This document shows, piece by piece, positions 1-33,201 of a DNA stretch of 33,456 bases. The translations under genes and the position numbers were made by a program. Source of the stretch: Myxococcota bacterium. GTDB taxonomy: Bacteria; Myxococcota; XYA12-FULL-58-9; JASMKV01. Below the pieces are notes generated by a model that was given only the letters and a program-made list of their open reading frames with translations, did no database searches and had not been told where the DNA came from. Location of the stretch: the NCBI GenBank assembly GCA_030749035.1, contig JASMKV010000486.1, positions 1 through 33,456 on the forward strand. Direction: 5' to 3'. Each line of letters begins with the position of its first letter. Position 1 is the stretch's first letter.

Positions 1-10
1 TGCATTAGAT

Positions 11-10045: not shown

Positions 10046-10792
10046 ATGCGTGATAAAAATCAATCAATAACACATCTTCATATGGAACCTGTCGGCGGTA
10101 TTGCTGGGGATATGTTTTTAGCCGCACTTTTAGATATGGGAGTGAGTCCCAGGCCTATTGAAGAAGCTTTTGCGAGTTTGAACTTACCCGGACTGAGTTT
10201 AGAAACACAGCAGGTTTCGGTCAACAATATTCCAAGTTTGTATGTGCGCTCGATGGCCCCTGAGTCGCAACACCACACGGACTTAAATGATGTTTTGGCG
10301 CGCATAGAGGCTTCATCCGCATCTGTAGATGCAAAATCTCTTGCGACAAAAATATTCAAGGTCCTGGCCAATGCTGAAGCCCGGGTTCATGGTGGCGAGG
10401 CTGAAAAGGTTCATTTGCATGAGGTTGGCGCACTTGATTCCATTATGGATGTGTTGGGGGCGGCGATTGCTTATTGTGAGCTTGGGGCACCGGAGATGAC
10501 CTATGCGCCAATACCTGTAGGATTCGGCCAAGTTGAGACCTCTCATGGTTTGCTTGATGTCCCTGTGCCCGCAGTTCGGGAAATCTGTCAAGAACATGGT
10601 TTGGCGCTGGAGGATGTGGATGTTCAAGGAGAGACTTTGACGCCGACGGGCGTCGCGCTTATCGGGGCTTTAGGGGCAAAAAACACATCAGCACCCCAAA
10701 AAGAGTTGTTGGCAAGTGGTGTGGGGGCAGGCACATTGCGTTTTCCACAAAGAGCGAATGTGCTTAAGGTCTTTGGGTACGGTGATGCTTAA
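10046..10792 (+). CDS. larC: LarC N-terminal domain protein (nickel-pincer cofactor family, DUF111), LarC1 only
   Basis: Relative of LarC, the CTP-dependent nickel insertase that completes the pincer cofactor of lactate racemase. The front GIAGDMFLAALLDMGV, the central KVHLHEVGALDSIMDVLGAA, the HGLLDVPVPA segment, ETLTPTGVALI, and the closing RANVLKVFGYG match the LarC1 half. The protein stops there at 248 residues; the C-terminal LarC2 half, which binds CTP in studied LarC, is absent. In lactobacilli LarC1 and LarC2 are joined by a programmed frameshift, but the only overlapping frame here encodes the sensor protein, not LarC2. No larA, larB or larE is in the window. The stop overlaps the start of the sensor gene by 8 bp, which suggests translational coupling. 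Whether LarC1 alone is active is unknown. Confidence 0.85.
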   Translation: MRDKNQSITHLHMEPVGGIAGDMFLAALLDMGVSPRPIEEAFASLNLPGLSLETQQVSVNNIPSLYVRSMAPESQHHTDLNDVLARIEASSASVDAKSLATKIFKVLANAEARVHGGEAEKVHLHEVGALDSIMDVLGAAIAYCELGAPEMTYAPIPVGFGQVETSHGLLDVPVPAVREICQEHGLALEDVDVQGETLTPTGVALIGALGAKNTSAPQKELLASGVGAGTLRFPQRANVLKVFGYGDA

Positions 10793-12722
10793 AGGTGTGA
10801 CGGATGATTTTAGGGTCGGCTTGCTCGGCAGTACACCTGTACCGGGGCTTGATTGTGTTGCGCATCTCGAAGCATTGGCTCCAGAATTAGACGCCGTTGT
10901 TCTGGAACATAATGTCACCGATGTGCGTCTTGAAGATGTGCGCGCGAGTTTTCCGAAAGCGGATGTTGTGGCCTGGTACCCTGAGGGCGTGCCTAAGGAT
11001 TTGCAAGGCGCGCTTGGAGAAAACTACGATGGTATCGCCTTGAGTCAGGAGCATTTGCTCTTTGTCCTTAATGCGATCAAAAAACGTTATTTTCAGTACC
11101 GACGCTTTCGGGAGCAGCAGCGCTTAACGCAAGGGGTGTTAACGCTTGTGAACGAATTGGCCGAAGCCACAGACCTGCAGGGGGTTTTACGAAAAGTTAT
11201 TTTGCGCCTGAGCGAGATCTTTTCTATTGAGCGGGTCTCCGTGGTGATGTTGAAGCCGGAAAGCGATATCGCCTTTGTGGTGATGGAGCATGAGGCGGCG
11301 CTTCTCGACACCGTGATGATTCGCTTAGAAGATTACCCTGAAATACAGGAGATTATGCGTACCGGAAAACCACTTATCATTTCGGATGTTTTGGCCAATG
11401 ACTTATTGCATGGTGTGCGTACGAAAATTAAAAAAGCAGCAGTGCGGCATAGATCGGCGATGCTTTTCCCTTTGCACCGCGGGCAGGAAGTGATTGGCGT
11501 CTTGTTTTTACGTAGCCCCGATCCACTCCAGGATGTTGACAATCGTCTTATGGACTTGGGTCGCGCGATTGCTCTGGTGACTTCAGTTTCGATCGGGCAT
11601 GTTCTGGACCTCGATAAATTGTTGGTTGAGCGACGTGCCATGGCAAAGGCCCAAGCAAAGGCCGATGAGGAATTGGCCGACCTCAAGCAGTTTTATGATT
11701 TACTGGAGCAAGAGCATGATGGGGTGCTTCTGATTTCTTTAGAGGGGGTCATTGATTATGCCAATCAATCGGCAGGTTTGCTGCTTAAGGGTGATGCGGC
11801 AGAATTAAAGGGCCAGATCTTTAGCGATTTCCTGGAGGGTGAATCCAAAGAACTCTTAGGCAAGGCAATGCAAGGTGAGGATGTGACGAGCGATAGAGGT
11901 TATGTCGATCTTGAAATGTCCTTTGAAGAACAAGCATTTATTTTTTCTTCATCGATTCAATACATCGAAGAGCGCAAAGGGATATTACTCACTTTACGTG
12001 ATGTCACCCAGTTGCGTGAGATTGAGGATGAATTGCGTCAGACAAAAGAATTTTTAGAAAACCTCATTCAGAGCAGTGTTGATGCGATTGTTGCAGCGGA
12101 TATGAAAGGTCGTATTTTACTCTTCAATCGTGCCGCCGAACAAATCCTTGGTTATTCTGCTATGGAAGCCGTTGGGCATCTTAATGTGACGTCTATTTAC
12201 GATAAGGAAGAAGCGTATCAAGTCATGCGCATCATGCGTTCGGCAGGGCAAGGTGGGGCAGGGCGCCTCGAGCAAATTCGACGTGATCTTATTGCTAAGA
12301 ATGGCGAAAAGGTCCCCGTGAGCTTTTCAGGGGCAATTATTTATGAGCAGGGACAGGAAACCGCTTCGGTGGGGATCTTCACCGATTTGCGTGAGCGCTT
12401 GCGGATGGAAGAGAAGCTTTCTGAGGCTCAGCGTCGTGTTCAGATGAGTGAACGTCAAGTTGTGGCGATGGAGTTGGCTGGTGTGGCGGCGCACGAATTG
12501 AATCAACCGCTAACGTCCATTCTTGGTTATGCGGAAATGTTAGACAAACGTTTGACTGGTGATGATGTAAAAATCCGCAAGCCTGTAGATGTTATTTTGC
12601 GCGAAACCGAACGCATGGCGCAGATTGTTCGGCGGATTGGTCAAATCACAAAATACGAGACAAAATCCTATGTGGGCAAAGCGCAGATTTTAGCCCTGGG
12701 TGATGAAAGTCAGGAAGAGTAA
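10785..12722 (+). CDS. GAF-PAS-PAS-HisKA sensor protein lacking the ATPase domain
   Basis: A 645-residue cytoplasmic sensor. Residues 8-95 have receiver-like alternating strands without conserved acidic residues. A GAF domain spans about 125-275, PAS 1 about 300-410, and PAS 2 about 420-538 (DAIVAADMKGRILLFNRAAEQILGYS). A HisKA helix pair follows, with the H-box AGVAAHELNQPLTSI giving His570. The protein then ends at TKYETKSYVGKAQILALGD; the N, G1 and G2 boxes of a HATPase_c domain are absent, and the next gene is convergent, so the domain has not been split off. It should not autophosphorylate, but could be phosphorylated in trans or act through HisKA dimerisation. The ATG at 10785 overlaps the larC1 stop by 8 bp; the frame stays open further upstream but only inside larC1. 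Confidence 0.88.
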   Translation: MLKGVTDDFRVGLLGSTPVPGLDCVAHLEALAPELDAVVLEHNVTDVRLEDVRASFPKADVVAWYPEGVPKDLQGALGENYDGIALSQEHLLFVLNAIKKRYFQYRRFREQQRLTQGVLTLVNELAEATDLQGVLRKVILRLSEIFSIERVSVVMLKPESDIAFVVMEHEAALLDTVMIRLEDYPEIQEIMRTGKPLIISDVLANDLLHGVRTKIKKAAVRHRSAMLFPLHRGQEVIGVLFLRSPDPLQDVDNRLMDLGRAIALVTSVSIGHVLDLDKLLVERRAMAKAQAKADEELADLKQFYDLLEQEHDGVLLISLEGVIDYANQSAGLLLKGDAAELKGQIFSDFLEGESKELLGKAMQGEDVTSDRGYVDLEMSFEEQAFIFSSSIQYIEERKGILLTLRDVTQLREIEDELRQTKEFLENLIQSSVDAIVAADMKGRILLFNRAAEQILGYSAMEAVGHLNVTSIYDKEEAYQVMRIMRSAGQGGAGRLEQIRRDLIAKNGEKVPVSFSGAIIYEQGQETASVGIFTDLRERLRMEEKLSEAQRRVQMSERQVVAMELAGVAAHELNQPLTSILGYAEMLDKRLTGDDVKIRKPVDVILRETERMAQIVRRIGQITKYETKSYVGKAQILALGDESQEE

Positions 12723-12730
12723 TCTCTTTT

Positions 12731-12746
12731 GGGGAGCACTCTCCCT
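12731..12746 (+). terminator. Weak intrinsic terminator candidate after the sensor gene
   Basis: A short hairpin with stem GGGAG / CTCCC, loop CACT, and one further G-T pair, followed by the T-rich stretch GTTTCTTC. It lies 9 bp behind the sensor stop and in front of the convergent etfA end, where a terminator is expected. The stem is only five to six pairs and the T run is interrupted, so the call is tentative. Confidence 0.4.
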
Positions 12747-12761
12747 GTTTCTTCATAGAAT

Positions 12762-13718
12762 TTAAGATTTGATGGATTCTATAATTTGTGGAACCGCATC
12801 AAAGAGGTCAGCGACTAAGCCATAGTCGGCAACTTGGAAAATGGGTGCTTCTGGATCTTTGTTGATCGCGACAATCACTTTTGAACCCTTCATGCCGGCC
12901 ACGTGCTGTATTGCTCCGCTTATGCCCAGTGCAAAATACAGATCTGGAGCGACAATTTTCCCTGTCTGCCCGATTTGCAAATCATTGGGTACCCAACCGG
13001 CGTCACAAACAGCACGGCTGGCGCCTAGCCCAGCGTTGAGCAGGTCGGCGAGCTCTTCGACAACTTTAAATCCGTCTGAGCTTTTTACACCGCGCCCACC
13101 GCTGACCACGACGTCGGCGACTGTGGCATCGGGACGTTCGCTTTTGATCTCTTTAAGATCGACAAGAGAAGTCTTGAGTTGGTCTAAGTCTACGTTGACA
13201 GGCAACGTTTCGATGCTTGCTTCTGAACCGGCTTCAGGAGCATCAAATTCGGTGGTTCGGACCGTACAGATTTGACGTTCAGATTTGAGTTCAACAGTGG
13301 CGAGAACATCACCGGCCCACATGGGACGCTTGAATGTTTTGGCACCAATGACTTCGAGAACATCACTGGCCATTGCGGCATTAAGCCTTATGGCTAAACG
13401 AGGAAATAAATCTTTACTCAAGGAAGAACTTGCGCCAGCAATGGAGGTTGCGCCGCAAGCTTCAGCCGCTGCGCTTAAGCCGGTGGCATAGCTTTCTGCG
13501 AGGTAGTTGTGCATCGACGGGTCATCAATGACAAAAACTTTTTCTGCGCCGTAGCCTTTCACGGCTTGTGCAGCTTCGCCGGCATTTTCGCCAACGAGAA
13601 GCAAATTTAAACTGCCGCCACTTTGTGCGCTCAATTGTTGTCCAAAAGTGATGGCGTTAAGGGATAACTTTTTTGGCTCTCCGCCAGCATGTTCAATAAG
13701 TATGAGAACGTTTGACAT
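12762..13718 (-). CDS. etfA: Electron transfer flavoprotein, alpha subunit
   Basis: FAD-carrying subunit of the ETF heterodimer, which takes electrons from acyl-CoA and similar dehydrogenases and passes them to an ETF-quinone oxidoreductase. The C-terminal FAD domain is fully recognisable: VSGGRGVKSSDGF, GASRAVCDAGWVP, QIGQTGKIVAPDLYFALGISGAIQH, and the INKDPEAPIFQVADYGLVAD signature near the end. At 318 residues it is of normal length. AAAGGAGT sits 6 bases before the ATG, a strong ribosome site. It follows etfB after 12 bp. No dehydrogenase or ETF-QO gene is in the window, so the electron donor is not shown. Confidence 0.96.
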   Translation of the reverse strand: MSNVLILIEHAGGEPKKLSLNAITFGQQLSAQSGGSLNLLLVGENAGEAAQAVKGYGAEKVFVIDDPSMHNYLAESYATGLSAAAEACGATSIAGASSSLSKDLFPRLAIRLNAAMASDVLEVIGAKTFKRPMWAGDVLATVELKSERQICTVRTTEFDAPEAGSEASIETLPVNVDLDQLKTSLVDLKEIKSERPDATVADVVVSGGRGVKSSDGFKVVEELADLLNAGLGASRAVCDAGWVPNDLQIGQTGKIVAPDLYFALGISGAIQHVAGMKGSKVIVAINKDPEAPIFQVADYGLVADLFDAVPQIIESIKS

Positions 13719-15536: not shown

Positions 15537-17222
15537 TTACTCTGGTGCTTTGATGCGCAGGTGTTGACCAGTCTTTAAGACAATTTCAGTCTTGTATCTT
15601 ACTGCTTCTGAATCTGGAGCAATAAGTTCAATCAGATGTTTTCCGGAAGGTATTTGTTTCCCCAACAAAGGCGTATTGCCGACATTTTTACCGTCAATTT
15701 TCACCAGGGCCCAGGGATTGGCGCCGATTGTCACTGTGCCGTACTCAATGCTTTGACTCGGCTCTTGAAGTTGTGGGGAGGGGGGAGGCGTGATGGCTTG
15801 AGAGGGCTCGGTTTTTTGAGCTGCCTTTGGAGCTTTTTTATTTATATGTTTTCGAGTTGCTTTTTTCTTGTTGGACTTTGTTGTTTTGGCTTTTTGGTTT
15901 TGACGTTTTTTTGTGGAGGTTTGTCTTTTAAGGTTTTGTTTGGGGGCAACCAGTGTGGGCATGCCATTTTTCATCACCACTTTGGTGCCAGGGGGGGACG
16001 AATGTGTTTTTTGTGACAAAACAATCAGGCCAAGCAGGGAACCCAAAAAGATCAGGGGGAGCATCCAACGCACCATCGGACGGTCAACCATATAGCGGGT
16101 TTTCGTAAGTATTCTTTGAATCGGTGGTGCTTTTGGGGTTGCGCCGCTTTGACTTAGGTTCAGGGCTTCCTGTACTGGGTTTGATGCTTTTGCTTGAACG
16201 GTTTGCATGTCGCGAGGGCGACCGCGGGCTGCAGGTCTTGTCGTGTCTATGTCTTCGGGGTGAAGAAGTCCTTGGAGCTTAGAGCGATGTTGTTCAAGTT
16301 CAGATGCGAGTTCGATGCGCGCAAAACTTTCGAGTGTGTCTTCTTTAAAGTCAGGAGCCAGAGCGCTTAAGGCTTCAGCAAATTCCAAACTGTTTTCGAA
16401 ACGTTTGTCCCGGTCACGTTCAAGGGCTTTTAATACAATGGCATCGAGTTCAGGTGGGATGCCAGGATTGATCTCGGATGGCTTGGGTGCGTTTGAGTCC
16501 AGGACCTTGCGTATGGTTTGGGCAATACTTTCTGCCCGAAAAAGTCGTTTGCCGGTCAGTGTTTCATGCAAAACCACGCCAGCGGCAAAAATGTCGGTGC
16601 GCCGATCGATATGTTCTGAATTGATTTGCTCAGGCGACATATAGGCGGGTTTGCCTTTGGGCATGCCCAGCGAGGTGGCTGGCGCCTCCCGGTCACGCAT
16701 TAAAGCGATGCCAAAATCAATAATTTTAGCACGTCCTTCAAAGGTGAGAATCAGATTTTGTGGGGAAATGTCCCGATGAACAACGCCGTAGGACTCACCG
16801 TTTAAGTCTTTAAGTTCGTGAGCCGCGTGCAGTCCGCGCAAGACTTCATCCATATAGCGAACGGCGACGCCAATGGGCAGCGCGGCTTGGCGCTTGGTGA
16901 GAATCTCACTTAGTGGTTCCCCGGAAACATATTCCATGACCAGATAAAGAATGTCGTCTGCTTTGTTTTCGCCAAAATCATGGACCTGGGTGATCGCAGG
17001 GTGCTCCAGGCGTGAAAGAAGATGGGCCTCGTCCAAAAACATTTTTTTTAGATCTTCATGTTTGCGCAAATCAGAACGAATGGTTTTAATTGCGACCAAC
17101 TTTTCAAAGCCAAAGACACCTTGCTTACGGCCCATCAGGACTTCGCCCATGCCGCCAGTTTTGATGGTGCTTAATATTTCATAATCGCCGAGGGTCTGCT
17201 TCGCTTCGAGGCGCTCACTCAT
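15537..17222 (-). CDS. Membrane-anchored Ser/Thr protein kinase with periplasmic PEGA domain
   Basis: Hanks-type kinase of 561 residues. The catalytic domain (about 13-290) is complete: glycine loop KTGGMGEV, Lys46 in VAIK, the HRD motif at 149-151 in HRDISPQN, DFG at 169-171, and an MSPEQ activation-segment end at 195-199. A linker leads to one transmembrane helix (about 386-403). Beyond it lies a Lys-rich segment (432-468) and a Pro-rich stretch, then a PEGA domain (about 494-560: TVTIGANPWALVKIDGKNVG), expected in the periplasm. The start ATG overlaps the stop of the FHA-sigma54 gene in an ATGA, so the two are co-translated; FHA domains bind phosphothreonine, so that protein is a likely substrate or reader. 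The basic linker could contact acidic envelope polymers (speculative). Confidence 0.93.
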   Translation of the reverse strand: MSERLEAKQTLGDYEILSTIKTGGMGEVLMGRKQGVFGFEKLVAIKTIRSDLRKHEDLKKMFLDEAHLLSRLEHPAITQVHDFGENKADDILYLVMEYVSGEPLSEILTKRQAALPIGVAVRYMDEVLRGLHAAHELKDLNGESYGVVHRDISPQNLILTFEGRAKIIDFGIALMRDREAPATSLGMPKGKPAYMSPEQINSEHIDRRTDIFAAGVVLHETLTGKRLFRAESIAQTIRKVLDSNAPKPSEINPGIPPELDAIVLKALERDRDKRFENSLEFAEALSALAPDFKEDTLESFARIELASELEQHRSKLQGLLHPEDIDTTRPAARGRPRDMQTVQAKASNPVQEALNLSQSGATPKAPPIQRILTKTRYMVDRPMVRWMLPLIFLGSLLGLIVLSQKTHSSPPGTKVVMKNGMPTLVAPKQNLKRQTSTKKRQNQKAKTTKSNKKKATRKHINKKAPKAAQKTEPSQAITPPPSPQLQEPSQSIEYGTVTIGANPWALVKIDGKNVGNTPLLGKQIPSGKHLIELIAPDSEAVRYKTEIVLKTGQHLRIKAPE

Positions 17223-18571
17223 GGTTTTTCGATTCCATATTTCTGCATGAGTTCGCGAAAGTGCCGACGGTTAATACCGGCATATTCTGAGGCTTGCGAA
17301 ATATTGTATTTATGTGCGGCGGCGACAGAAGCCAAATAACGTTGTTCAAAATATTCCGTCCAAATTTCTTTGGCTTCTTTAAAGGGCAGCGAGGTGTCTA
17401 CCGTCGGTAGGTTTTGATTTTCCGCCGCATCTGGGCCTAACCAAAAATTCAGCTTGTCAAAAGTGGCGCCCTTGGGCCCGCCGAGAACCCAGGCACGCTC
17501 CAGTGTATTGCGCAGCTCACGCACGTTACCGGGCCAGGAATATTTCTGTAGTTTGATCAGATTCTCTCCGGCGATGTCTCCGGCATCTAAACCGCGCCCT
17601 TCGTAAAAATGTTTGATGAGTCCGGGAATATCCTCGCTCCTGTCTCTTAAAGGCGGGAGCAGAACATGGATCACAGCCAGGCGATGAAAAAGGTCAAAAC
17701 GAAATTTCTCTTCCTGGACCATTTGATAAAGGTCACGATGGGTTGCGGCAACAACCCGGGTGTTTACTTTCACTTGCTTGTCTGAGCCAACCGGCTGGAC
17801 AGTTTGTGCCTCTAAAACTCGCAAGAGTTTCGCTTGCGCTGCGGCCGGCAGCTCACCGAGTTCATCAAGAAAAACGGTGCCGCCGTTGGCTTCTAAGAAT
17901 GCCCCTTTGCGTTCGCTTTGCGCGCCGGTAAAAGCGCCTTTGACATGTCCGTAAAGATGAGAATCGATGAGGTTTTCGGTGATCGCACTGCAGTCGACCA
18001 CAACAAAAGGCTTGTTGGCGCGCTCGGAGTGGTCGTGTAGTGCCCGCGCAACCAATTCTTTACCCGTACCTGATTCTCCCTGGATAAGCACCGTGGCATC
18101 GGTTGGACTGGCAAGTTCCAGAATGGCGAAAATTTCGCGCATGATCATGCTTTGTCCTGCCATGGCGCCAAAACGTTCACGTTCTGATGGGGGAATGCTT
18201 GGTGGGGCCATTTCAAGAAGTCGCAGCACACTCTCGCCGACTTGCAGGCTCGCGCCTACGGGGACAAGGGCCTCTTGTATTTTTGAGCCTTGATAGTAAA
18301 CGCCGTTGGTGCTTTCGAGGTCTTTGACCGTGACGCCTGCCTCAGAGAGCTGAAGCTCAATATGTTGCCGGGAAATTTGTTCGTCACTTAAGACGAGATC
18401 ACATTGTCCATCAGCACCAACAATACTGGGACGCTGGCCTAGACTTATTTGCGTTCCGGTGTCCGGCCCTGAGGCGACCCGACAAATGCACGAGCGTTTG
18501 AGAGATTTTGTCGCCGTATTTGAAGAAACCAGTCCGCTGGCGGCAATCGTGTGTCTATCAATCTCTGTCAT
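17219..18571 (-). CDS. Sigma54-dependent transcriptional activator with N-terminal FHA domain
   Basis: Enhancer-binding protein of 450 residues. The FHA domain (about 40-118) keeps the phosphothreonine-binding residues in SRQH (68-70) and STNG (87-90). The AAA+ domain has Walker A GESGTGKE (165-172), the sigma54-contacting loop GAFTGA (212-217), Walker B GGTVFLDELGEL (230-241), and the SWPGNVRELRN sensor region (345-355). A Fis-type helix-turn-helix closes the protein (about 410-446). GAFTGA is intact, so it should open sigma54 promoters. The ATG at 18571 is chosen; a longer frame to 18664 adds unconvincing residues. It is co-translated with the kinase, suggesting control by threonine phosphorylation, a pairing known from Myxococcus. 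A good sigma54 promoter lies elsewhere in this window, before the caspase-like gene. Confidence 0.94.
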   Translation of the reverse strand: MTEIDRHTIAASGLVSSNTATKSLKRSCICRVASGPDTGTQISLGQRPSIVGADGQCDLVLSDEQISRQHIELQLSEAGVTVKDLESTNGVYYQGSKIQEALVPVGASLQVGESVLRLLEMAPPSIPPSERERFGAMAGQSMIMREIFAILELASPTDATVLIQGESGTGKELVARALHDHSERANKPFVVVDCSAITENLIDSHLYGHVKGAFTGAQSERKGAFLEANGGTVFLDELGELPAAAQAKLLRVLEAQTVQPVGSDKQVKVNTRVVAATHRDLYQMVQEEKFRFDLFHRLAVIHVLLPPLRDRSEDIPGLIKHFYEGRGLDAGDIAGENLIKLQKYSWPGNVRELRNTLERAWVLGGPKGATFDKLNFWLGPDAAENQNLPTVDTSLPFKEAKEIWTEYFEQRYLASVAAAHKYNISQASEYAGINRRHFRELMQKYGIEKP

Positions 18572-18690
18572 GGCCCAAAGCCTAACACAGTCGATGCGGG
18601 CAAAGCCAAACACTAAATGCATAAAATTTAAAGCAACTTTGTCTCTTGTTGCGTGCAAATCCATGAAAATTGGATAAGGTGCATAAAGTG

Positions 18691-20865
18691 ATGCGTGTTT
18701 TGGGATACCAAACCCTATTTTTAGTGTTGATGCTGGTGGGCTGTGCCGATCCGCAGGTGCAGATTACCGTGAATCAACCTGCGGGCTTTACATTTGATGC
18801 CCTTGAGGTGGAGAGCCTTGTTGTCAATATTCTTTATCCGCCGCTCACGGCCGATGCTGGCTTGCGTTTTGATTGTGATGATATTGCTTATCAGGATGTG
18901 ACTCGCGCAGAAGCCTTAAGTCATATGGGGCAGCAGCTTACGATCAACAAAGGTCAAACAAAGAATGCGCTTGATGGCTTGGACCGCCATCGCACGAAAC
19001 TGTTTTGGCTTGAAGGTTATAGCGCCGACTTCGTTTTGGTTTTGGCTGGCTGCGCCGCATTGGCGCCATCGGATGTGGATGCGCGTGTCTCGATTGATAC
19101 TTGGGTAAGCCTGCGCGCCGAAGTGGCCTCTTTTGACCCTTCTTTGCCCATTGATTATGATGCAGAACTGGGTGGGGATATACCGGCCTCTTGTGACGAT
19201 GTGCAGACCAACTGTCCCGATGCGATCCAAGTCACGCTCAAGCAGCAAGAAGACATTTATACCGCGGGCCGCGATGTGCGACTTAGGTTGATTACAGGAT
19301 TGGTGCAAGATGTGCCGATGTGTAATGCAACGCAAGTTTGTGAAGGTGGAGAATCTGATGGACGGCATTGCACGCAGAAAAGTGATTGTCGCCCAGCGGT
19401 TTTGCCAGACAAAGAAGAAATTTTGACAAGCGATGGTGAGGGAGAGGTCACTTGGTCAACCTTGAAGGCGCCCCCGGGCATTGCCGGGCCCCTTATTCTC
19501 GAAGTGGTCGCCAAATGGCAAAGCCATGAGCCTTTGACGTACACCTTTGGTGTAAGCTTGCCTAAGAGCGGTAATGTTATGGCTCTTGGTCAAGCAAGTG
19601 CTTTTGATGCGAATGATAAGCCTCATGGTTTTGTGGTTGGGGCACTTGGCCCCCTTGGCCAACCGGGTGTGGCGCTTCTTTATGAAGATCTGAGTCAAAG
19701 CGATGATGGTGTGAAATATGATTTGTCTGTGACCTATTTTGGTGGGGGACAGGTTGGCTCGGCAACAGGCTCAGGGAGTGAAAGCTGTTCTGAGACACAT
19801 GACCGCCATGAAATCTGTTACCAAACCACTTACCACACGCAGCTTGAGACACTGCTTACGGTCAAGCCAGTGATGTTTAAGGGACGTGGTGCCGCGGTGA
19901 ATAATGATGTGTTGATTGGTGTACGTTCATCGGCTTGGGATCGCTTAGAGATGGTTTACGATGATGCGGTGGCTCCAAGTGCGATTGTGATGCACTCGAG
20001 TTCGGATACGACATCGGGGGTGGGAAATGTGAGTCAGGTTTTAGCCGTTGATGATTGTCACAATGAAAACACCATGGACGAAGTGCTCTTGCGTGCCATG
20101 CCTGGCGGGGACCCTATTTTGGGCTTGCGGGATCTTGAAGGCCAGGACATTCAAAGTGACCATCCGTTTGCGCCCCTGATGTCTGGCGGCATAAGCGAGG
20201 AACTCATCTCTTCGCAAAAGGAATTTGCCTACAGCGCCTGTATACAAGCCAATGATAATATGTCCTACCGGGTGCTCTTTGAAGATGAACGCAATCTCAA
20301 TGTCGTTTTGGCGACCGATGATGGTTTGCTTGGCGCAACCTGGAATTTGGTGCTTTCAGGGGGGCTGACCCATTCAAAAGCCATCACGGGAGCGTATGCA
20401 GAGCCGGCGATGATTTTTGGTGTACGTCCTTTAGGTACCGGTTTGGCTTTGGTGCGCTCGCAATTGCTTTTAGGGGATTCTGTTTTAGAGATACAGGAAC
20501 GCGATACGGATACCATTCCTTTTGTACCGCAGCGGTCCTTTGCGCAGGATTTTGATGGCGATGGCGCACTCGATGTGATTGCGATGTTGCATACGAATTT
20601 TGGTGTGAGCCCCGTGGTTTTTTATATGGTTCGTGGTGTGAAATATAAAGGCCAGCGCATCGCAGGTTATGTGGCACAGACAGGTATCGCACAAAGCACC
20701 ATGGCGCTTTTGGATGTGAACTGTGATGGGCTTGATGACATGGTCATGCTTAATTCCTGGAAGGGTGTCGATGCGAGTGAGAAAGTCAGCATTACGGGGC
20801 TGCATCAAGATATCGATTATTCGACTTTAGTGACATCGAGTGCGTGTGCTTTTAATGACGATTAA
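18691..20865 (+). CDS. Lipoprotein with FG-GAP/VCBS-like Asp-rich loops, unknown function
   Basis: A 724-residue predicted lipoprotein. The N-terminus FLVLMLVGC is a lipobox with the lipidated Cys about 18 residues from the ATG. A beta-rich N-terminal half follows, with a Cys-bearing insert (CNATQVCEGGESDGRHC) that resembles the Cys modules of the later lipoproteins. The C-terminal part has repeats of FG-GAP/VCBS type with calcium-loop sequences DFDGDGALD and DVNCDGLDD, suggesting a partial beta-propeller. No catalytic residues were recognised. A GTG and a TTG lie just upstream in frame; ATG 18691 keeps a short basic n-region. The gene is divergent from the FHA-sigma54 gene across about 119 bp, and its last 14 bp overlap the end of the caspase-like gene. 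Probably a surface protein; the ligand is unknown. Confidence 0.75.
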   Translation: MRVLGYQTLFLVLMLVGCADPQVQITVNQPAGFTFDALEVESLVVNILYPPLTADAGLRFDCDDIAYQDVTRAEALSHMGQQLTINKGQTKNALDGLDRHRTKLFWLEGYSADFVLVLAGCAALAPSDVDARVSIDTWVSLRAEVASFDPSLPIDYDAELGGDIPASCDDVQTNCPDAIQVTLKQQEDIYTAGRDVRLRLITGLVQDVPMCNATQVCEGGESDGRHCTQKSDCRPAVLPDKEEILTSDGEGEVTWSTLKAPPGIAGPLILEVVAKWQSHEPLTYTFGVSLPKSGNVMALGQASAFDANDKPHGFVVGALGPLGQPGVALLYEDLSQSDDGVKYDLSVTYFGGGQVGSATGSGSESCSETHDRHEICYQTTYHTQLETLLTVKPVMFKGRGAAVNNDVLIGVRSSAWDRLEMVYDDAVAPSAIVMHSSSDTTSGVGNVSQVLAVDDCHNENTMDEVLLRAMPGGDPILGLRDLEGQDIQSDHPFAPLMSGGISEELISSQKEFAYSACIQANDNMSYRVLFEDERNLNVVLATDDGLLGATWNLVLSGGLTHSKAITGAYAEPAMIFGVRPLGTGLALVRSQLLLGDSVLEIQERDTDTIPFVPQRSFAQDFDGDGALDVIAMLHTNFGVSPVVFYMVRGVKYKGQRIAGYVAQTGIAQSTMALLDVNCDGLDDMVMLNSWKGVDASEKVSITGLHQDIDYSTLVTSSACAFNDD

Positions 20866-22078
20866 GCTGTGTTTCGAGTTGCACGATCTCTTCTTCAAGA
20901 CATTCATTCCATCGGTCGAGAAAATCCATGCCCAAGGTAGAGTTTAAGTTTTCAGGCTTTAGATGAAAACGTTTCAGTATCGCCTGAAAACTTGTTTCTT
21001 CTTTGAGCGCTTTTCTCAGGGCCTGAATTTTTATCGGCTCTTGTGGTTTTTGATAGGCATGAAGTGGTATGGCTTCAGCGCCACGTAAGCCTATCGTATC
21101 TTGCTGTGTCACAGATATGAGATTGGGTACGCCCATGTTTTTGTTGATGAGTTGGGCTTCTTGCACGCAACATTGACCGAGGTAGACAAGTGCGTCCATC
21201 AGTTCTTGCCTTTTTGGGTGTGTGCTTTTTTTTGCGCGTTGCCAGAGTTTGGTCAGCTGGGTCATGCGTGCCTGATTGGCCAATTGTCCCGAAAAACAAG
21301 TGTCGACAACCAGGGCGAAATGAATATTCCGGGCTTGGGCAAGTTCTTCAAGCTCAAGGAGCTGCGTCACGTTGACGGCCGTGTTGGGGGATTCGGTTGT
21401 CGAGAAAACAAAAGAACCATCTTTTTGCCCGTGCCCCGAGAGCCAAAGAAGCACTTCATCGCCAGGCGCTGCTTTTTCAATGAGCTGAAAGGCCGCGTCA
21501 AAAAAGTGATTGCGATTTGGATTGATAAGATGTGCACAGGTAAAATTTAAAGGTTCAAGCGCTTGGCTCAGGATCTCAATATCTTTGAGCGTGCCGGGGA
21601 GTGAAGGCAGCGTCGGATGCGCTTTGTAATTATGCGCTGCGACCATGAGGGCGTAGCGTTGTGCATTGGGGTTGCTTGTCGCCGCACCGCGAGAATGCGT
21701 ATTGGGAAATTGTTTGCGGGCGTTTGGTTGCATTTGGAGTTGCTCTTTGGAAGTGGCGTTTAAGACAGCAAATATATCGCCAGCGCTCTGCTGCAGATTT
21801 TGTGAGAAACGTTGTGCGAACCAGGAACCTTCCTTGCCGTCAGCGATTTCCTGCAGGGCTGAGCCGGTGCCAATGAGGATGCCCTGGGGACGTGTGGGCT
21901 CTGCCGGTTTGGGACTTGTCGCTTTGAGTTTGGTTTGCGTGTCTGTCTTTTTAGAGGAAAAGATGTCGGGCTGTCTTAAGCGTGTGTGTGGCTGCTTTAC
22001 AGGCAGAGGTCCAGAACCGGCACTTTGATGCGCCCCCATTTGATGCATCTTGGTGCCGGTCTGGGTTTTTATCAGCAT
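20852..22078 (-). CDS. Caspase-like (peptidase C14 / metacaspase) protein
   Basis: A 408-residue protein with a caspase-fold domain at about 140-290. The first strand ALMVAAHNY leads into the LPSLPGTLKDIEILSQAL segment, where caspase relatives place the small-residue/Asp motif. The catalytic pair is visible as His216 in LWLSGHGQ and Cys261 in VVDTCFSG. The first 140 residues are polar, rich in Q, T, S, P and K and probably disordered, with no signal peptide, so the protein is likely cytoplasmic or exported by another route. The C-terminal 120 residues are helical and unassigned. Bacterial members cleave after Arg/Lys or Asp in signalling or death-like responses; the specificity cannot be read here. 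A -24/-12 promoter match and GGAAAG before the ATG support the start. It overlaps the upstream-lying lipoprotein gene tail to tail by 14 bp. Confidence 0.87.
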   Translation of the reverse strand: MLIKTQTGTKMHQMGAHQSAGSGPLPVKQPHTRLRQPDIFSSKKTDTQTKLKATSPKPAEPTRPQGILIGTGSALQEIADGKEGSWFAQRFSQNLQQSAGDIFAVLNATSKEQLQMQPNARKQFPNTHSRGAATSNPNAQRYALMVAAHNYKAHPTLPSLPGTLKDIEILSQALEPLNFTCAHLINPNRNHFFDAAFQLIEKAAPGDEVLLWLSGHGQKDGSFVFSTTESPNTAVNVTQLLELEELAQARNIHFALVVDTCFSGQLANQARMTQLTKLWQRAKKSTHPKRQELMDALVYLGQCCVQEAQLINKNMGVPNLISVTQQDTIGLRGAEAIPLHAYQKPQEPIKIQALRKALKEETSFQAILKRFHLKPENLNSTLGMDFLDRWNECLEEEIVQLETQLNRH

Positions 22079-22117
22079 ATGCTTTCCAATCTTTCGTTCC
22101 GTTCTCCTCTAGGCTAG

Positions 22118-22133
22118 TGCAGACCTTGTGCCA
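22118..22133 (-). promoter_or_regulatory. Sigma54 (-24/-12) promoter candidate of the caspase-like gene
   Basis: On the minus strand the sequence reads TGGCACAAGGTCTGCA. Against the sigma54 consensus TGGCACR-N4-TTGCW the only mismatch is C for the first T of TTGC, and the invariant GG and GC are separated by exactly 10 bases. The predicted transcript start is about 12 bases beyond the GC, giving a leader of roughly 30 bases with a ribosome site (GGAAAG) before the ATG at 22078. The match and position fit well; activity is inferred. Confidence 0.65.
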
Positions 22134-22365
22134 AAACGTTGCTCATCAGAAACATCTCTTAGATACTGTATTTAAAGGTTTTTTTGGAGAAACGTTTTGA
22201 GGTCAAATTTTGCTGTGCAGCGTGCAGATCATTTTGCAGGGGTAAAGGGCTTGTCCTGTTCCCTCGAGGGACCAGGGGACGACTTCGTCAAGGAGGCGCT
22301 TCACGGGAGCATGGCTGCGGCTTTGGGGTTTAACTTTTAGGCCACTTAAAGCCTGCGCAAAGCGA

Positions 22366-22390
22366 TACTCCCCTAAGCTTTAGGGGAGTA
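22366..22390. terminator. Perfect 11-bp hairpin behind the Asp/Trp lipoprotein gene
   Basis: Arms TACTCCCCTAA and TTAGGGGAGTA flank the 3-base loop GCT. It starts 31 bp beyond the minus-strand stop at 22421. On that strand it is followed by TCGCTTTGCG rather than a clean T run, so it may be a weak terminator, an RNA 3'-end stabiliser, or a protein-binding palindrome. Confidence 0.45.
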
Positions 22391-22420: not shown

Positions 22421-23851
22421 TTAAGCCTGTTCGCAGCCGGCAAATTGGGTTGCTTCGCAGTCTTCACAGGGTGCGCTAAAATTGGGTGCACACTCAGGGG
22501 CCATATTGCACTCAGGCAAATCAAGTCCCTCGCATTCGTCGCGTTCGGTGCAGGTGACAAATTCCCAATCGTCACAGCCACTGCAGCTGTTGCTGTAGAG
22601 GGCCATACAACCAGGGACCGCATCGCACATGCCCGCATCGTTGATGTCGTTGCAAGAGGTGGCGCTGTTGTCGCTGCAACCGGCGTCGCTCATATTACAG
22701 TCTGGTCGCTCCCAGCAGTGCTCTTCATTGAGTGAAGAACAGGTCAGCTCCCAAAAGGGCACACAACCGCCAAAGTTGTCGCTGCTGCCTTGGGGGACAC
22801 ATTCATAAGCGTCGTTGCATTCTTCGGGGCCCATGTCGTCACATTGTTCTGGTTCATTATCCTCAGGTTCGTTGTTCCCAGGCCCGCCATTGCCTTCATG
22901 GGGGGTGCATTGAAACGTGGCTTCGCAAGTCCCATCATCACATTCTTCATGCCAATGAGATTCACATTCGGGTGCCCAGTCGCAGAAGTCGGGTCCTAAG
23001 TCTTCGCAACCCCAGTTTTCCCAGTCGCCGCCTTCTTCGTTATCCCAGTCATCCCAATCGTCTTCGCCACCCTCTTCGTCGTCCCAATCATCCCAATCGC
23101 CGCCTTCGTCTTCATCGACACATTCAAAGTGTTCGTGACAGCCGTTGTCGTCGCAATCTTCCCAGTAGTGGGGTGCGCAACCGGGTATCCATTCGCAATA
23201 ATCCGGACCTGCGTCACCACAGCCCCAGTCACCCCAGTCGCCTTCGTCGTCTTCCTCATCATCCCAATCGCCCCAATCGCCTTCACTTTCCTCATCGTCC
23301 CAGTCGCCCCAGTCATTGTCGCTGTTTTCATCTTCGATGCATTTGAATTCCTCTTCGCATTCACCCTCTTCGTCACATTCTTCCCACCAGTAGGGTACAC
23401 AGCCGGGCGCCCATTCGCAGTAGTCGGGTCCGATGTCTTCGCAAGACCAGTCGCTCCAGTCACTGTCCTCATCATCGCCTTCCTCATTGTCCCAATCGCC
23501 CCAGTCGCCCCAGTCGTCCTCATTTTCATCATCGTTTCCAGGGTGATGCCAGTCGTCGCCATCTTCACAATCGTCACAACGCTCGCGTGGGACACAGTTG
23601 ACCACTTCATGGCAGCCATCATCGTCGCATTCTTCGCCCCATTGGGGTCGACAACCATCGGCGCGATGACATTGTTCTTTGCTCAGCTCATGACAGGGCG
23701 GGGTGCCCGCATCATCGTTGCGATTGTCGCTACCGGCTTGGAGGGAATCAAGGTTGGCGTTATCGTCATTGTTGCCCATGCCGTCGTCGCGAAAACAACC
23801 CACAAGTGCCAGCCCTAAACTCAGGCAAGAGATCAAAACTCGAAATTTCAT
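22421..23851 (-). CDS. Asp/Trp/Cys-rich repeat lipoprotein
   Basis: A 476-residue lipoprotein: signal sequence with lipobox LVGC (Cys19), then a disordered acidic spacer. Successive six-Cys modules follow the spacing C-x7-C-x5-C-x7-C-x4/5-C-x5-C, for example cysteines 53/61/67/75/80/86, 137/145/151/159/165/171, 211/219/225/233/238/244 and 282/290/296/304/309/315, with partly degenerate modules from 337 to the end. Modules 2-4 share the core GPD(Y/F)C(E/D)W-P--C and are separated by linkers made of DWGDW and DDEE units at 113-136, 179-210 and 251-281. The many even-spaced cysteines point to disulfides outside the cytoplasm. No enzymatic motif is present. A possible promoter (TTGCGC, 18 bases, TATAAG) lies upstream. 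The function is unknown; a calcium-binding surface or matrix protein is inferred from composition. Confidence 0.82.
   Translation of the reverse strand: MKFRVLISCLSLGLALVGCFRDDGMGNNDDNANLDSLQAGSDNRNDDAGTPPCHELSKEQCHRADGCRPQWGEECDDDGCHEVVNCVPRERCDDCEDGDDWHHPGNDDENEDDWGDWGDWDNEEGDDEDSDWSDWSCEDIGPDYCEWAPGCVPYWWEECDEEGECEEEFKCIEDENSDNDWGDWDDEESEGDWGDWDDEEDDEGDWGDWGCGDAGPDYCEWIPGCAPHYWEDCDDNGCHEHFECVDEDEGGDWDDWDDEEGGEDDWDDWDNEEGGDWENWGCEDLGPDFCDWAPECESHWHEECDDGTCEATFQCTPHEGNGGPGNNEPEDNEPEQCDDMGPEECNDAYECVPQGSSDNFGGCVPFWELTCSSLNEEHCWERPDCNMSDAGCSDNSATSCNDINDAGMCDAVPGCMALYSNSCSGCDDWEFVTCTERDECEGLDLPECNMAPECAPNFSAPCEDCEATQFAGCEQA
23009..23515 (-). repeat. Three tandem module-plus-linker units with acidic Asp-Trp linkers
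   Basis: Linkers at 23444-23515, 23222-23317 and 23009-23101 encode repeated DW(G/D)DW and DDEE units, each followed by a six-Cys module. The DNA is itself repetitive (recurring CCCAGTCGCC and CCAATCGCC), so the linkers probably grew by local duplication while the Cys modules diverged. Confidence 0.75.
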
Positions 23852-24355: not shown

Positions 24356-24627
24356 TGCTCATGTTGGCTCGCCCAAGGCATGTCGGGCACCTTGTGGGCT
24401 CGAGCGCAATGGCGTAAGTGTTGAAGAATACAGGCTAAAGCGAAATTTTATTGTGCGCAGATCAGATTGAGAAAAAAACTCTGCTTTGCTCAAGTTTTGC
24501 TTCGAACACCCTGAATTTTCTGCTAAAAATTCTATACGCCGCGGTGGCTTGAGTGTGATGCTTTGGGTATGCTTTGTCTGGGCCAGGGTTAATGCTCAAC
24601 GCCCGCGTATGGACTGGTGCGATTTTG
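24356..24627 (+). other. Intergenic leader between crcB and the giant lipoprotein gene
   Basis: A 272-bp stretch with no gene that can be supported. It has a GC-rich first part with imperfect inverted repeats around 24371-24400 and an AT-rich middle (about 24440-24540) where a promoter for the giant gene could lie, but no -35/-10 pair stands out. Confidence 0.4.

Positions 24628-33201
<8,574 letters not shown>

What the first reader, a model, noticed from the sequence alone, without database searches (positions are those of the whole stretch)
22118..22133. Near-consensus sigma54 promoter in front of a bacterial caspase-like gene
TGGCACAAGGTCTGCA has the exact GG-N10-GC spacing and a single consensus mismatch, and lies about 30 bases plus a ribosome site before the start codon. 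A complete FHA-sigma54 activator with an intact GAFTGA loop is encoded a few genes away. A signal-gated, kinase-linked caspase would be a notable circuit.
Basis: partly seen in the sequence, partly recalled or inferred. Interest (0 to 1): 0.62.

Follow-up and report, generated by a model that had tools for sequence, protein, structure and literature searches.

The report
Reversed-order bacterial caspase, sigma54 promoter
A Myxococcota-like bacterium carries a caspase-like protein-cutting enzyme whose two parts appear in reversed order, behind a promoter type that is silent without an activator; that order was reported absent from bacteria, and in engineered caspases it makes the enzyme permanently active.

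Summary
The site is real (minus strand, 22133..22118), but the 16-mer alone is no rarer than chance (17 matches, 16.5 expected). The genome decides. TGGCAC-N5-TTGC is enriched over other spacings (38 of 95) and sits between genes (26/37, against 2/25 at wrong spacings). A matrix trained on such sites ranks this one first of 66,762 window positions. I accept a sigma54 promoter (about 0.85), although no rpoN gene is in the 97.7%-complete assembly; all 7 order-mates have one. Control by the nearby FHA activator is unsupported: at least eight other G[AS]FTGA activators exist.

The larger finding is the protein. A p10-like part precedes the p20 catalytic part. The N-terminal segment alone matches Pfam C14 positions 160-225 (E=0.0019); moved behind p20 it yields one continuous match (61.5 against 39.2 bits). 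A paralogue and two proteins from other genomes appear to share the order. A 2019 survey of 11,208 prokaryotic sequences found none. Engineered caspases with this order are constitutively active, so transcriptional control would make sense.

The N-terminus resembles those of other sigma54-driven cysteine peptidases without signal peptides, in a genome with a type III secretion cluster. I favour an exported effector over a suicide circuit (inference).

The parts
22118..22133 (-). -24/-12 sigma54 promoter TGGCACAAGGTCTGCA; predicted transcript start near 22107
22255..22276 (.). 22-nt palindrome CCTGTTCCCTCGAGGGACCAGG, candidate activator site about 150 nt upstream of +1; the only 22-nt palindrome with >=10/11 pairs in the window; its 18-nt core has one other genomic match only at 3 mismatches
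22132..22199 (.). imperfect inverted repeat (arms 22132-22153 and 22178-22199, 77%) abutting the -24 element; significance unknown
20852..22078 (-). 408-aa C14 (caspase-like) peptidase gene, ATG start
21893..22078 (-). residues 1-62: disordered S/T/P/Q/K-rich N-terminus, no signal peptide seen by eye
21692..21883 (-). residues 66-129: p10-like segment, placed before p20; matches PF00656 positions 160-225
21227..21658 (-). residues 141-284: p20 catalytic domain; His216 (SGHG) and Cys261 (DTCFSG)
17219..18664 (-). FHA + AAA+ sigma54 activator with GAFTGA; separate operon, link to the caspase not shown
15537..17222 (-). Ser/Thr protein kinase with PEGA domain, 4-nt overlap with the activator gene

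Best explanation
A sigma54-type (-24/-12) promoter drives a C14 cysteine peptidase in which a p10-like segment precedes the p20 catalytic domain, i.e. a natural circular permutant. SHOWN by sequence: the promoter element and its fit to the genome's own sigma54-like set; the intact His/Cys dyad; the reversed order in profile matches. INFERRED: in the reversed order p10 packs onto p20 without inter-subunit cleavage, so the enzyme folds active once made (as in engineered reversed caspases), and expression is therefore controlled by a promoter with no activator-independent activity. INFERRED, weaker: the enzyme leaves the cell as an effector. It has a disordered N-terminus without signal peptide, like the C39-like, calpain-like and CHAP-like peptidases behind other sigma54-like promoters, and the genome carries a type III secretion cluster. 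Which activator is used is unknown.
For: Promoter: spacing enrichment, intergenic position, top matrix score, no sigma70-like alternative. Permutation: the N-terminal segment alone hits PF00656 160-225 at E=0.0019, the best of 24,736 models. Rearranged p20+N-terminus gives one match 2-225 at 61.5 bits, against 39.2 bits (2-151) with the native C-terminal tail. hhalign of four N-terminal segments to 23 canonical p10s gives P=3.6e-4; the C-terminal tails give 0.99. A paralogue in the same genome (C7, 1143 aa) and homologues in G005 and G029 show p10-like sequence before p20, read by eye for the last two. Nearly all canonical relatives match the profile in one stretch from p20 into p10, while this genome's only two caspases stop at 131 and 151. 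Fold: Foldseek hits are caspases and MALT1, and include the engineered permuted caspase-2. Engineered reversed order is constitutively active (PMC7760212). Effector idea: T3SS cluster, sigma54-driven peptidases, N-terminal composition.
Against: No rpoN gene was found in the assembly. The p10 match is short and weak by itself: a p10 HMM from canonical relatives finds the right place in the window and C7 proteins but at 1.8 and 5.3 bits, levels that some of 2,500 shuffles exceed (at least ten for the window protein, eight for C7), and does not find it in G005 or G029. The single-sequence model is low-confidence in the p10 part, so the fold does not test the permutation; Foldseek aligns mainly p20. 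Export is not tested, and no chaperone or secretion gene lies near the caspase. The paralogue and G005 homologue lack the promoter element.
Confidence: 0.6

Rival explanations
1. One reading: a signal-gated cell-death or stress caspase switched on by the neighbouring FHA activator after phosphorylation by the linked kinase, acting inside the producing cell.
For: FHA activator with GAFTGA and kinase 2-6 kb away; sigma54-type promoter; FHA-type activators are known in Myxococcus development (Jelsbak 2005, cited in PMC12288465).
Against: Separate operon with a convergent gene between; at least eight other G[AS]FTGA activators, several FHA-like; effector-like N-terminus shared with other sigma54-driven peptidases.
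Confidence: 0.15
2. The N-terminal p10 resemblance is spurious: this is an ordinary orthocaspase (p20 only) with a disordered N-terminus and a helical tail.
For: Low scores of individual p10 comparisons; low model confidence for that part.
Against: Three comparisons agree on the segment; the same arrangement in a paralogue only about 23% identical in p20; no p10 match behind p20.
Confidence: 0.15
3. The -24/-12 match is chance and the gene is transcribed from another promoter; or the lineage has lost sigma54 and the sites are relics.
For: 17 window matches against 16.5 expected; rpoN not found.
Against: Wrong-spacing controls, intergenic enrichment and matrix rank; some 26 well-kept promoter-like sites and intact GAFTGA loops argue against relics; lptB, the usual rpoN neighbour, also has no close match in the assembly, while ptsN-hprK-rapZ are present on another contig.
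Confidence: 0.12

Closest known systems
Type III metacaspases (p10 before p20) of algae from secondary endosymbiosis
   Same: Order p10-p20 and a C14 dyad (PMC5756287).
   Different: Bacterial; the p20 is closest to MALT1 and caspases among solved structures; calcium dependence not tested; large N-terminal regions in three of the four members. The 2019 survey found no prokaryotic type III among 11,208 sequences (PMC6426788).
Prokaryotic orthocaspases / bacterial type I metacaspases (PF00656)
   Same: p20 fold, His/Cys dyad, over Pfam cutoff.
   Different: Those have p20 alone or p20 then p10; in 39 genomes searched nearly all matches run in that order.
Engineered circularly permuted caspase-2 (cpCasp2; PDB 9c2y, 8vp4)
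   Same: Small subunit before large; constitutively active single chain (PMC7760212); appears among the structural hits.
   Different: Man-made from human caspase-2; the activity of the present protein is untested.
FHA-domain sigma54 activators of Myxococcus xanthus
   Same: FHA + AAA+ with GAFTGA, here next to a Ser/Thr kinase gene.
   Different: No evidence that this one controls the caspase.

Membership tests
sigma54 (-24/-12) promoter | GG-N10-GC with TGGCAC/TTGC-like boxes | tested here: met
   exact spacing, one mismatch
sigma54 (-24/-12) promoter | fits the organism's own sigma54 set, upstream of a gene | tested here: met
sigma54 (-24/-12) promoter | rpoN in the genome | tested here: inconclusive
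   absent from a 527-contig assembly; present in 7/7 order-mates; usual neighbour lptB also lacks a close match
sigma54 (-24/-12) promoter | rpoN-dependent transcript start | not testable with these tools
   needs RNA and a mutant
Peptidase family C14 | PF00656 over gathering score | tested here: met
   55.3 bits, cutoff 21.4
Peptidase family C14 | catalytic His and Cys | tested here: met
   His216 and Cys261
Type III metacaspase | p10-like domain N-terminal to p20 | tested here: met
   weak when each protein is scored alone
Type III metacaspase | found in algae of secondary endosymbiosis | tested here: not met
   bacterial genome; so not filed as a member, only as same order of parts
Type III metacaspase | calcium-dependent activity | not testable with these tools
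   needs an assay
Orthocaspase (no p10) | absence of any p10-like segment | tested here: not met
   N-terminal p10-like segment
Type III secretion effector | type III secretion apparatus in the genome | tested here: met
   SctN and SctR over cutoffs, plus SctS, SctT, SctU and LcrH/SycD-like chaperones
Type III secretion effector | N-terminal secretion signal and translocation | not testable with these tools
   only composition compared
Type III secretion effector | adjacent chaperone gene | tested here: not met
   none recognised among the window's genes
FHA-type sigma54 activator (17219-18664) | FHA, AAA+ with GAFTGA, Fis-type HTH | tested here: met
   (HTH_8 slightly under cutoff, 21.2 of 22)

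The most novel reading that the evidence does not exclude
A family of naturally circularly permuted (p10-p20) bacterial caspases that are active as soon as they are made, gated by activator-dependent sigma54 transcription instead of by zymogen cleavage, and delivered to other cells as effectors together with other cysteine peptidases.
Probability: 0.3. Interest if true: 0.8.

Novelty: new variant of a known kind. Interest (0 to 1): 0.6.

Why it matters
The p10-before-p20 order was known from algae and from engineering, and was reported absent from prokaryotes. A bacterial family would give a second natural instance, bear on how caspase-like enzymes were rearranged in evolution, and allow a direct test of whether reversed order means constitutive activity in nature. 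It also links a caspase-like protease to a sigma54-type set of lipoproteins and cysteine peptidases in a Myxococcota-like lineage with a type III secretion system.

Tried and rejected
Treating the 16-mer match as significant by itself (chance level). Finding relatives of the caspase in GTDB contigs and viral contigs: none. Conservation of the promoter in homologues: not seen in C7 or G005, off-contig in G029. Canonical p10 HMM on its own: right place in two of four, weak scores. MAFFT alignments of the p10 segments are unreliable. An automatic listing of weak hits read minus-strand loci in the wrong direction; corrected. rpoN beside ptsN: not there.

Full report
OBSERVATION. The sequence TGGCACAAGGTCTGCA lies at 22133..22118 on the minus strand, 40 nt (from the end of GC) before the ATG of a 408-aa gene at 20852-22078. 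Spacing is exact, with one mismatch. By itself this is not unusual: the pattern has 17 matches with up to two mismatches in the window against 16.5 in shuffles, and five with one mismatch.

GENOME TEST. I used the spacing as an internal control across the 3.97-Mb genome. TGGCAC-Nn-TTGC occurs 22, 9, 38, 17, 9 times for n=3..7. The CTGC variant, to which the window site belongs, has 18 of 44 at n=5 (p=0.001). Sites with n=5 are mostly outside scored ORFs, often 10-60 nt before a start on the same strand (26/37 uncovered); wrong-spacing sites are nearly all inside ORFs (2/25 uncovered). For CTGC it is 8/18 against 2/20 (p=1e-6 and 0.03). ORFs were called by a simple codon-usage rule, not a gene finder. 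A matrix from 27 promoter-like sites, none from the window, puts this site first of 66,762 window positions. Its score (16.7) is at the low end of the training range (15.6-31.3), a range inflated because TTGC was fixed there. No sigma70-like site was found upstream on that strand.

RPON. Neither PF04552 nor TIGR02395 finds rpoN in this assembly, whereas all seven order-mates and 51 of 58 genomes searched have it. In order-mates rpoN stands between lptB and ptsN. Here ptsN-hprK-rapZ are intact but without rpoN beside them, and lptB has no match above 35% identity. Since well-kept promoters and G[AS]FTGA activators abound, a gap in the 527-contig assembly is the likelier reading, but loss is not excluded.

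THE PROTEIN. PF00656 matches residues 141-284 to profile positions 2-149, with the dyad at His216 and Cys261. The N-terminal segment alone matches positions 160-225 at E=0.0019. Moving it behind p20 produces a single match 2-225 at 61.5 bits; p20 with its native C-terminal tail gives 39.2 bits, ending at 151. For the paralogue on C7 the same move gives 52.0 (5-193) against 46.9. hhalign of four N-terminal segments to 23 canonical p10s gives P=3.6e-4, and of the four C-terminal tails 0.99. A canonical p10 HMM picks the right place in two of four proteins but with low scores that some shuffles exceed. In 39 genomes searched almost all C14 matches run p20-p10 in one stretch; this genome's only two stop at 131 and 151. 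I count four members: window, C7 (1143 aa), G005 (1086 aa) and G029 (1177 aa), in 3 of 195 genomes of the phylum; for G005 and G029 the p10 part rests on reading by eye and on the pooled hhalign result.

FOLD. The model of residues 60-290 (pTM 0.56, p20 blocks largely pLDDT 60-87) hits MALT1 and caspases (best E=2.6e-4), and the engineered permuted caspase-2. This confirms the caspase fold of p20; it does not test the permutation.

LITERATURE. Type III metacaspases have p10 first and were found only in algae of secondary endosymbiosis (PMC5756287). A survey of 11,208 prokaryotic sequences found none (PMC6426788). Switching the order in human caspase-2 gives a constitutively active single chain (PMC7760212). 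Only open-licence papers were searched, so a later report of bacterial cases may exist.

SURROUNDINGS. Genes behind the genome's sigma54-like promoters are largely lipoproteins and proteins without signal peptides whose N-termini are rich in S, T, P and Q; among the latter are a C39-like, a calpain-like and a CHAP-like peptidase (the last under the Pfam cutoff) and a NuiA-like protein. A type III secretion cluster with LcrH/SycD-like chaperones lies on C113. Myxococcota predators carry T3SS-related machinery (PMC11509652). Export of the caspase is an inference from this context.

CONTROL. The FHA activator/kinase operon is separated by a convergent gene, and there are at least eight other G[AS]FTGA activators. 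The intergenic region holds the window's only strong 22-nt palindrome (22255-22276), about 150 nt upstream of the predicted start, where activators of sigma54 promoters commonly bind (own knowledge). It has no near-copy elsewhere in the genome.

VERDICT. Promoter probably real (0.85); permutation probable (about 0.8); effector role plausible (about 0.4); control by the neighbouring FHA protein unsupported (about 0.15).

Noticed in passing
own genome, upstream of TGGCAC in e.g. L018, L038, L039, L043, L044: A CTTAAG-like element about 30 nt upstream of TGGCAC in 14 of 37 sigma54-like sites against 2 of 25 wrong-spacing controls; possibly a second recognition element. The window site has it only with 2 mismatches.
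   Followed up: partly
own genome C351 (L118/L120): ptsN-hprK-rapZ present but rpoN, their usual neighbour in the order, is not beside ptsN; an M16-peptidase-like gene is divergent there.
   Followed up: partly
own genome C113 (L171:125-13956): Type III secretion cluster with two LcrH/SycD-like chaperones and a protein with a weak needle-like C-terminal match.
   Followed up: partly
own genome C7 (L121:263-3691): 1143-aa permuted caspase paralogue; on the same contig an 876-aa protein with a similar disordered N-terminus (10780-13410, minus).
   Followed up: partly
window 24574-33201 (+): 2875-aa Cys-rich protein with long poly-Asp tracts, no Pfam or NCBIfam match.
   Followed up: no
window 22421-23851 (-): 476-aa putative lipoprotein with repeated W/D/E-rich and Cys-rich blocks, no family match; followed by a perfect 11-bp stem at 22366-22390.
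   Followed up: no
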